From Phycicoccus elongatus Lp2 (GTDB lineage: Bacteria > Actinomycetota > Actinomycetes > Actinomycetales > Dermatophilaceae), in NCBI RefSeq assembly GCF_000367525.1, contig NZ_HF570956.1, positions 1,111,896 through 1,175,895 on the forward strand: a stretch of 64,000 nt of DNA, read 5' to 3'. Shown here piece after piece: positions 60,801 to 61,601 of this stretch. The notes beneath the pieces are model-generated. The model was not told the DNA's origin and ran no database searches. It saw only the letters and a list, made by a program, of their open reading frames with translations. The translations under genes were made by a program, and so were the position numbers. Numbering within the stretch: the stretch's first letter is position 1; each line of letters begins with the position of its first letter.

Positions 60801-61601
60801 GTGGGTGAGGCCGCGCGCAAGCTCTACGAGGACGCCCAGGAGATGCTCGACAGGGTGATCGCCGAGGAGTGGCTCACCGCCAAAGGCGTCGCGGCGATCC
60901 TGCCCGCGAACGCGGTGGGTGACGACATCGAGGTGTATGCCGCGGGGTCCGATCGAGAGGTCGTGGCCACCATCCACGGCTTGCGGCAACAGGGTGAGCA
61001 CCGGGCGGGAGTGCCGAACCGGGCCCTCTCGGACTATGTGGCCCCGCGCGACTCGGGAGTCCTCGACCATGTCGGCGCCTTCGCCGTCACGGCCGGTCTG
61101 GGCGCCCAGGACCGCATCATGGCCTTCAAGGCGGACAACGACGACTACTCGGCGATCCTGCTCGAGGCGATCGCCGACCGGCTCGCCGAAGCCTTTGCCG
61201 AGCGGCTGCACCACTTGGTGCGCACCGAGTTCTGGGGGTACTCACCCGATGAGGACCTCGACAACGAGGCCTTGATCAAGGAGCAGTACGCCGGGATTCG
61301 GCCCGCGCCCGGGTACCCCGCCTGCCCGGACCACACGGAGAAGTTGACCCTCTTCGGCCTGCTCGACGCGACCGAGCGCGCGGGCATCGAACTCACCGAG
61401 TCGATGGCGATGTGGCCGGGAGCGGCCGCAGCCAGTACTTCGTCGTGGGCCGCGTCGGGCGTGACCAGGTCGAGGAGTATGCCGCGCGCAAGGGGTGGTC
61501 GCTCGCCGAGGCCGAGCGGTGGTTGGGTCCCAACCTCGGGTACCAACCCGAGGACTGATCGGTTGGCGCGCCGGCGGTGTCGGCCCCGCGGCATACGGTG
61601 A
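57858..61601 (+). CDS. metH: Cobalamin-dependent methionine synthase, 3' end frameshifted
   Basis: Transfers a methyl group from methyltetrahydrofolate to homocysteine. Order: homocysteine domain (zinc cysteines near 251 and 312-313), pterin domain ([11 protein letters not shown]), B12 cap and B12 domain ([13 protein letters not shown] near 768), then the activation domain. After [12 protein letters not shown] the expected SGWYFSHP segment is missing and the frame changes: the native continuation [22 protein letters not shown], to a stop at 61558, is in another frame. About 28 bases seem deleted near 61428. The frame as sequenced runs 1247 residues to 61601 with an unrelated tail. Confidence 0.88.

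What the first reader, a model, noticed from the sequence alone, without database searches (positions are those of the whole stretch)
61400..61601. Out-of-frame deletion in the metH activation domain
The conserved SGWYFSHP segment is missing and about 28 bases are lost, so the last 50-60 residues of the AdoMet-binding domain are read in a wrong frame, while the correct sequence still follows in another frame to a stop at 61558. Reductive reactivation of cobalamin would suffer.
Basis: seen in the sequence. Interest (0 to 1): 0.6.

Follow-up and report, generated by a model that had tools for sequence, protein, structure and literature searches.

The report
Frameshifted metH, probably an assembly error
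The vitamin-B12-dependent methionine synthase gene in this draft bacterial genome lacks 28 bases near its end, exactly where a close relative has a tight DNA hairpin, in an assembly with other sequencing failures, so the break is more likely a sequencing error than real biology.

Summary
metH (GTG 57858 onward) lacks a net 28 nt at 61427-61430 compared with its same-genus relative. The conserved SGWYF-HP segment is gone, 57 residues are read out of frame to 61601, and the expected C-terminus continues in another frame to the stop at 61558. The other 17 full-length activation-domain matches in relatives are unbroken.

The lost stretch matches, to within a base or two, a perfect 11-bp-stem hairpin in the relative. 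The out-of-frame remnant is undecayed: 88% identical over 42 codons, no stop. The "single contig" is a scaffold with 100-N gaps. Of its 16 runs of 12 or more G, 14 abut a gap and one ends the record. One such edge lies inside a hairpin. The sixteenth run replaces about 25 codons of an ABC-transporter gene that lies undeleted elsewhere in the same assembly.

A hairpin-skipping sequencing or assembly artefact is most likely (about 0.6). A real, very recent deletion is the main rival (about 0.33). Raw reads or a PCR would decide. No full MetE was found, but two possible bypass enzymes were.

The parts
57858..61427 (+). metH, in-frame part: homocysteine, folate (pterin), cap and B12-binding domains and most of the AdoMet activation domain
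   Evidence: Pfam PF02574, PF00809, PF02607, PF02310 and PF02965 (positions 2-243 of 273) on the translated ORF; NCBIfam NF007024 and TIGR02082. GTG start inferred.
61427..61430 (+). Junction where a net 28 nt are missing compared with G002; in G002 the corresponding stretch is a perfect hairpin with an 11-bp stem and 8-nt loop
   Evidence: Alignment and best gap placement (two tied placements one base apart); stem lengths in 29 relatives.
61428..61601 (+). Out-of-frame tail as read (57 residues and stop)
   Evidence: Translation; in-frame stop at 61599-61601.
61430..61558 (+). Expected C-terminus of the activation domain in another frame (42 codons plus stop), undecayed
   Evidence: 88% amino-acid identity to G002, dN 0.105, no stop; PF02965 positions 246-273.

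Best explanation
The 28-nt loss in metH is most likely not in the living cell's DNA. A hairpin in this G+C-rich stretch was skipped, either by the polymerase during library amplification or sequencing, or by the assembler joining reads that failed inside it, so that the assembled gene lost the stem-loop and its frame while the cell's gene is intact. Shown: the net 28-nt loss, its coincidence with a hairpin in the same-genus relative, the undecayed remnant, the poly-G marks at gap edges, and a false deletion elsewhere in the assembly. Inferred: that this strain had a similar hairpin there, and that the loss happened in vitro or in silico.
For: (1) The best gap placement (two tied, one base apart) covers base to base the stem-loop of G002: perfect 11-bp stem, 8-nt loop. 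It is the only hairpin with a stem of 9 bp or more in the 3934-nt sister metH stretch, and one of 9 with 11 bp or more in 140 kb. (2) The remnant is 88% identical to G002 over 42 codons, without a stop, dN 0.105 against 0.112-0.153 upstream. (3) 16 runs of 12 or more G in the whole genome: 14 run straight into a 100-N gap, 1 ends the record, 1 is internal; a run of false G to the end of a read is the known mark of signal loss in two-colour chemistry (passage in PMC13218037). (4) One such edge (genome 1191572) lies inside a stem-loop matching a 16-bp-stem hairpin of G002. (5) The internal run (1890813) joins the two sides of an ABC-transporter gene that are 75-78 nt apart in three relatives; an 864-nt copy of the same segment, 861 of 864 identical with all 3 differences at the run, lies at 2942 kb with the undeleted continuation up to an N gap. 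So this assembly does contain a false in-gene deletion without N. [quoted passage not shown] (7) No full MetE was found in this genome or in G002, so a real loss should be costly.
Against: This assembly reads through 18 other hairpins with stems of 10 bp or more in 164 kb, among them stems of 15, 16, 23 and 24 bp, so skipping is not systematic. Of 37 sister hairpins of 9 bp or more, 16 lie in aligned stretches and only the metH one is cleanly absent. There is no G run at the metH junction. The strong hairpin is seen in G002 only: the other 28 relatives have stems of 7 bp or less there, so the pre-deletion sequence of this strain may have been weaker. In 58 sister genes comparable with this genome metH alone shows a frame break with coding composition on both sides, so the assembly is not generally full of frame errors. 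No reads were available.
Confidence: 0.6

Rival explanations
1. A real, very recent deletion in the sequenced strain: replication slipped across the same hairpin, removing it and the frame. MetH keeps its three catalytic-cycle modules but loses AdoMet-dependent reactivation, so the enzyme dies as its cobalamin oxidises, and the strain needs methionine or a bypass.
For: The sequence itself; strong hairpins elsewhere in the assembly were read correctly; metH is the one clear frame break among 58 comparable genes; possible bypass enzymes exist: an MmuM/BHMT-like S-methyltransferase at 2160540 and a single-domain MetE-like protein at 1217594. A point change in the human activation domain lowers activity about 30-fold with the physiological reductase (abstract and passages of PMC12272874).
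Against: Assembly faults of a related kind are demonstrable in the same genome. The flanks of the lost stretch in G002 offer no evident direct repeat for slippage (alignment, by eye). The remnant has had no time to decay.
Confidence: 0.33
2. The gene is broken in sequence but works: ribosomal frameshifting or translation of the remnant as a separate peptide restores an activation domain.
For: The remnant frame is open and conserved, and a GTG at 61412 opens it as a 48-residue ORF.
Against: No slippery heptamer is seen at the junction (by eye); the conserved SGWYF-HP segment would still be missing; no relative examined shows such an arrangement.
Confidence: 0.03
3. Old pseudogene or adaptive truncation of the reactivation domain.
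For: Some relatives carry a MetH with only a weak, partial PF02965 match (10 of the 28 genomes with a match), so divergent activation domains exist in this group.
Against: Here the whole upstream ORF is intact and the remnant undecayed, dN equal to or below upstream; the profile match is of the full type and only split by the junction.
Confidence: 0.04

Closest known systems
Cobalamin-dependent methionine synthase MetH (TIGR02082 / NF007024), activation domain PF02965, E. coli structure 1MSK
   Same: All five Pfam domains in order; 285.8 bits to 1msk over residues 7-253 of the C-terminal query.
   Different: The assembled frame leaves the family at the junction; the last part of PF02965 is in another frame.
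[quoted passage not shown] Viswanathan 1999, seen only as cited in PMC3409199)
   Same: Loss from base to base of a stem-loop as seen in the sister genome, flanks intact.
Two-colour Illumina poly-G artefact (passage in PMC13218037)
   Same: G runs ending at gaps, at the record end and in one false join.
   Different: No G run at the metH junction itself; it speaks for the data type, not directly for this deletion.

Membership tests
MetH (TIGR02082 / NF007024) | Homocysteine, folate and B12 modules in one chain, score over the curated cut-off | tested here: met
   2015 bits (cut-off 1497) and 1698 bits (cut-off 1010.85); PF02574, PF00809, PF02607, PF02310.
MetH (TIGR02082 / NF007024) | Complete AdoMet activation domain in frame | tested here: not met
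   PF02965 positions 2-243 in frame, 246-273 in another frame.
Hairpin-skipping deletion artefact | Lost stretch equals a stem-loop | tested here: met
   In the sister genome only: 11-bp stem, 8-nt loop, best gap placement.
Hairpin-skipping deletion artefact | Undeleted sequence present in the same sample | not testable with these tools
   No reads held. One metH locus only in the assembly.
Hairpin-skipping deletion artefact | The assembly shows false deletions or hairpin failures elsewhere | tested here: met
   One internal false join in an ABC-transporter gene and one gap edge inside a hairpin; but 18 hairpins of 10 bp or more were read through.
Real pseudogene of metH | Further decay (stops, raised dN) after the break | tested here: not met
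   No stop, dN 0.105 over 42 codons against 0.112-0.153 upstream; dN/dS 0.244 against 0.105-0.202, on few sites.

The most novel reading that the evidence does not exclude
The deletion is real and the strain lives with a MetH that can no longer be reactivated by AdoMet, without any full MetE, making methionine through the MmuM/BHMT-like enzyme or the 330-residue MetE-like protein that most examined relatives also carry (20 of 23 genomes with a PF01717 match, this one included, some of them full MetE). That would give a natural test of whether the short MetE-like protein is a methionine synthase.
Probability: 0.1. Interest if true: 0.45.

Novelty: not a real feature. Interest (0 to 1): 0.12.

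Why it matters
If an artefact, it is a caution: a genome scored 99.89% complete in one contig can carry hairpin-linked false frameshifts in core genes and would be wrongly called a methionine auxotroph. If real, it would be a fresh loss of cobalamin reactivation in the only full methionine synthase found in the genome, and a handle on the uncharacterised short MetE-like protein.

Tried and rejected
A general frameshift-rich assembly was tested and rejected. In 164 kb against 140 kb of the sister, 19 apparent frame changes came out among 209 well-matched ORFs. On codon-position G+C, metH alone was clearly coding on both sides; one other, at window 20135-20934, was ambiguous and was not followed. 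In the larger set (364 kb against 340 kb, ORFs filtered by composition) 6 rows came out among 58 sister genes and metH was the one that passed the filter. The reverse test gave 7 rows among 66 own genes and one passing row in the sister, not followed.

An undeleted second copy of metH in this assembly: none found. A plasmid copy: no match. RNA elements in the window or the sister stretch: none at Rfam gathering thresholds. Flanking direct repeats at the junction: none of 7 nt or more in 61350-61500. Papers on metH frameshift, pseudogene and methionine auxotrophy together: none held all four terms. The naming of the host genus led nowhere; named hits such as Janibacter limosus reach 73% and near records may be left out. 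No structure prediction was run, since the solved 1MSK domain already covers the question.

Full report
What is there. The ORF 57738-61601 encodes MetH; an in-frame GTG at 57858 is the likelier start. It carries PF02574, PF00809, PF02607, PF02310 and PF02965 in order and passes two curated MetH models. A whole-genome search with PF02965 finds one locus, split at this place into profile positions 2-243 and 246-273 in two frames. The codon at 61425-61427 is the last in the right frame; 57 out-of-frame residues follow to 61601, while the expected C-terminus runs at 61430-61558 in another frame.

Comparison with relatives. Of 38 genomes searched, this one included, 28 have a PF02965 match. Besides this genome, 17 have a full-length, unbroken match; 10 have a weak, partial one (9 of those with a stop inside the matched stretch, not examined further). 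In the genus, 3 genomes are held: this one, G002 with an intact metH 82% identical, and G001 (82% complete) without a full-length MetH match. Against G002 the loss is a net 28 nt. The motif search read the segment uninterrupted in 29 of 36 relatives tried and missed 7.

Functional meaning if real. Query position 253 aligns to chain position 284 of 1msk, the W of SGW. With 1MSK taken as residues 897-1227 (recalled) this is W1180, so Tyr1189 and Tyr1190, which contact the adenosyl moiety (passage in PMC1282579), correspond to the YF of SQYF in the out-of-frame remnant. The letters of E. coli MetH beyond W1180 are recalled. AdoMet-dependent reactivation would be lost; the catalytic-cycle modules upstream would be untouched.

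The hairpin. Sliding the 28-nt gap along the alignment gives two tied best placements (8 mismatches), one base apart. They cover the stem-loop of G002: perfect 11-bp stem, 8-nt loop. In 140 kb of G002 there are 37, 18 and 9 hairpins with stems of at least 9, 10 and 11 bp and loops of 3-12 nt. By simple arithmetic, a random placement within 2 nt of one of the 9 has a chance near 3 in 10,000. By DNA folding G002 has the most stable structure at this site among 29 relatives, -18.8 against -14.6 for the next. Its stem is 11 bp against at most 7 in the other 28. The last point cuts both ways: the hairpin is exceptional, but it is known for the sister only.

Age of the break. Over the 42 remnant codons own and G002 share 88% of residues, with dN 0.105 and dS 0.431 (ratio 0.244). 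Upstream stretches of 48, 132 and 256 codons give dN 0.112, 0.126 and 0.153 and ratios 0.105, 0.167 and 0.202. The ratio of the remnant is somewhat higher through its low dS, on about 29 synonymous sites; there is no stop and no raised dN. The break is therefore very recent or not real.

State of the assembly. The genome is given as one contig of 3,174,691 bases at 99.89% completeness, but 7 gaps of 100 N lie in the 364 kb read. In the whole genome there are 16 separate runs of 12 or more G. 14 run directly into an N gap, one ends the record, and one is internal. This is the pattern of signal loss in two-colour chemistry (passage in PMC13218037). The data type is inferred, since no record of the platform was seen. 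The gap edge at genome 1191572-1191583 lies in a stem-loop: the edge carries the first arm, the loop and the start of the second arm before turning into G, and G002 has a 16-bp-stem hairpin at the matching place.

A proven false deletion. The internal run at 1890813-1890826 sits in an ABC-transporter ATPase gene. Query residues 174 and 176 are neighbours here but 78, 75 and 78 nt apart in G002, G001 and G003. An 864-nt copy of the segment stands at about 2942 kb, 861 of 864 identical, the 3 differences all at the run. There the gene continues normally for about 30 codons to an N gap. So one genomic segment was placed twice and one copy carries a false join.

Against the artefact reading. 18 hairpins with stems of at least 10 bp were read through in 164 kb of this assembly, up to 24 bp. 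Of the 16 sister hairpins in aligned stretches only the metH one is cleanly missing. Other genes show no clear frame breaks. The metH junction bears no G run. The in-vivo rival therefore keeps about one third.

Methionine supply. No MetE N-terminal domain was found in this genome nor in G002; 11 of 38 genomes have one. A single-domain MetE-like protein (PF01717, 42.3 bits; NCBIfam PRK00957 only 18.5 bits against a cut-off of 258) lies at 1217594-1218547, and G002 has a similar one. Whether it acts like the core-MetE of PMC7005905 (start of abstract seen in the listing) is unknown. A second PF02574 protein (231 bits), of MmuM/BHMT kind, lies at 2160540-2161400.

Verdict. Observation confirmed; biological reading doubtful; most likely an artefact at a hairpin, otherwise an ordinary recent loss of function.

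Noticed in passing
L200:658-1527 (genome 1889957-1890826) and L213:625-1572 (genome about 2942124-2943071): The same 864-nt segment of an ABC-transporter gene stands twice in the assembly; one copy runs into a C14 run that replaces about 25 codons, the other continues normally to an N gap.
   Followed up: yes
Genome-wide, 16 sites (L183-L198); nearest to the window at genome 1191572: 14 of 16 runs of 12 or more G abut a 100-N gap and one ends the record: marks of read failure in a scaffolded short-read-like assembly.
   Followed up: yes
L030:1483-2478 (genome 1217576-1218571): A single-domain MetE-like protein of 332-361 residues, poorly matched by the curated methionine synthase model PRK00957; PF01717 matches occur in 20 of 23 examined genomes, this one included.
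   Followed up: partly
L020-L029: Ten relatives have a MetH with only a weak, partial PF02965 match instead of the full activation domain; the two types alternate within the same family.
   Followed up: no
window 20135-20934: Possible frame change against a sister ORF with ambiguous codon-position composition.
   Followed up: no
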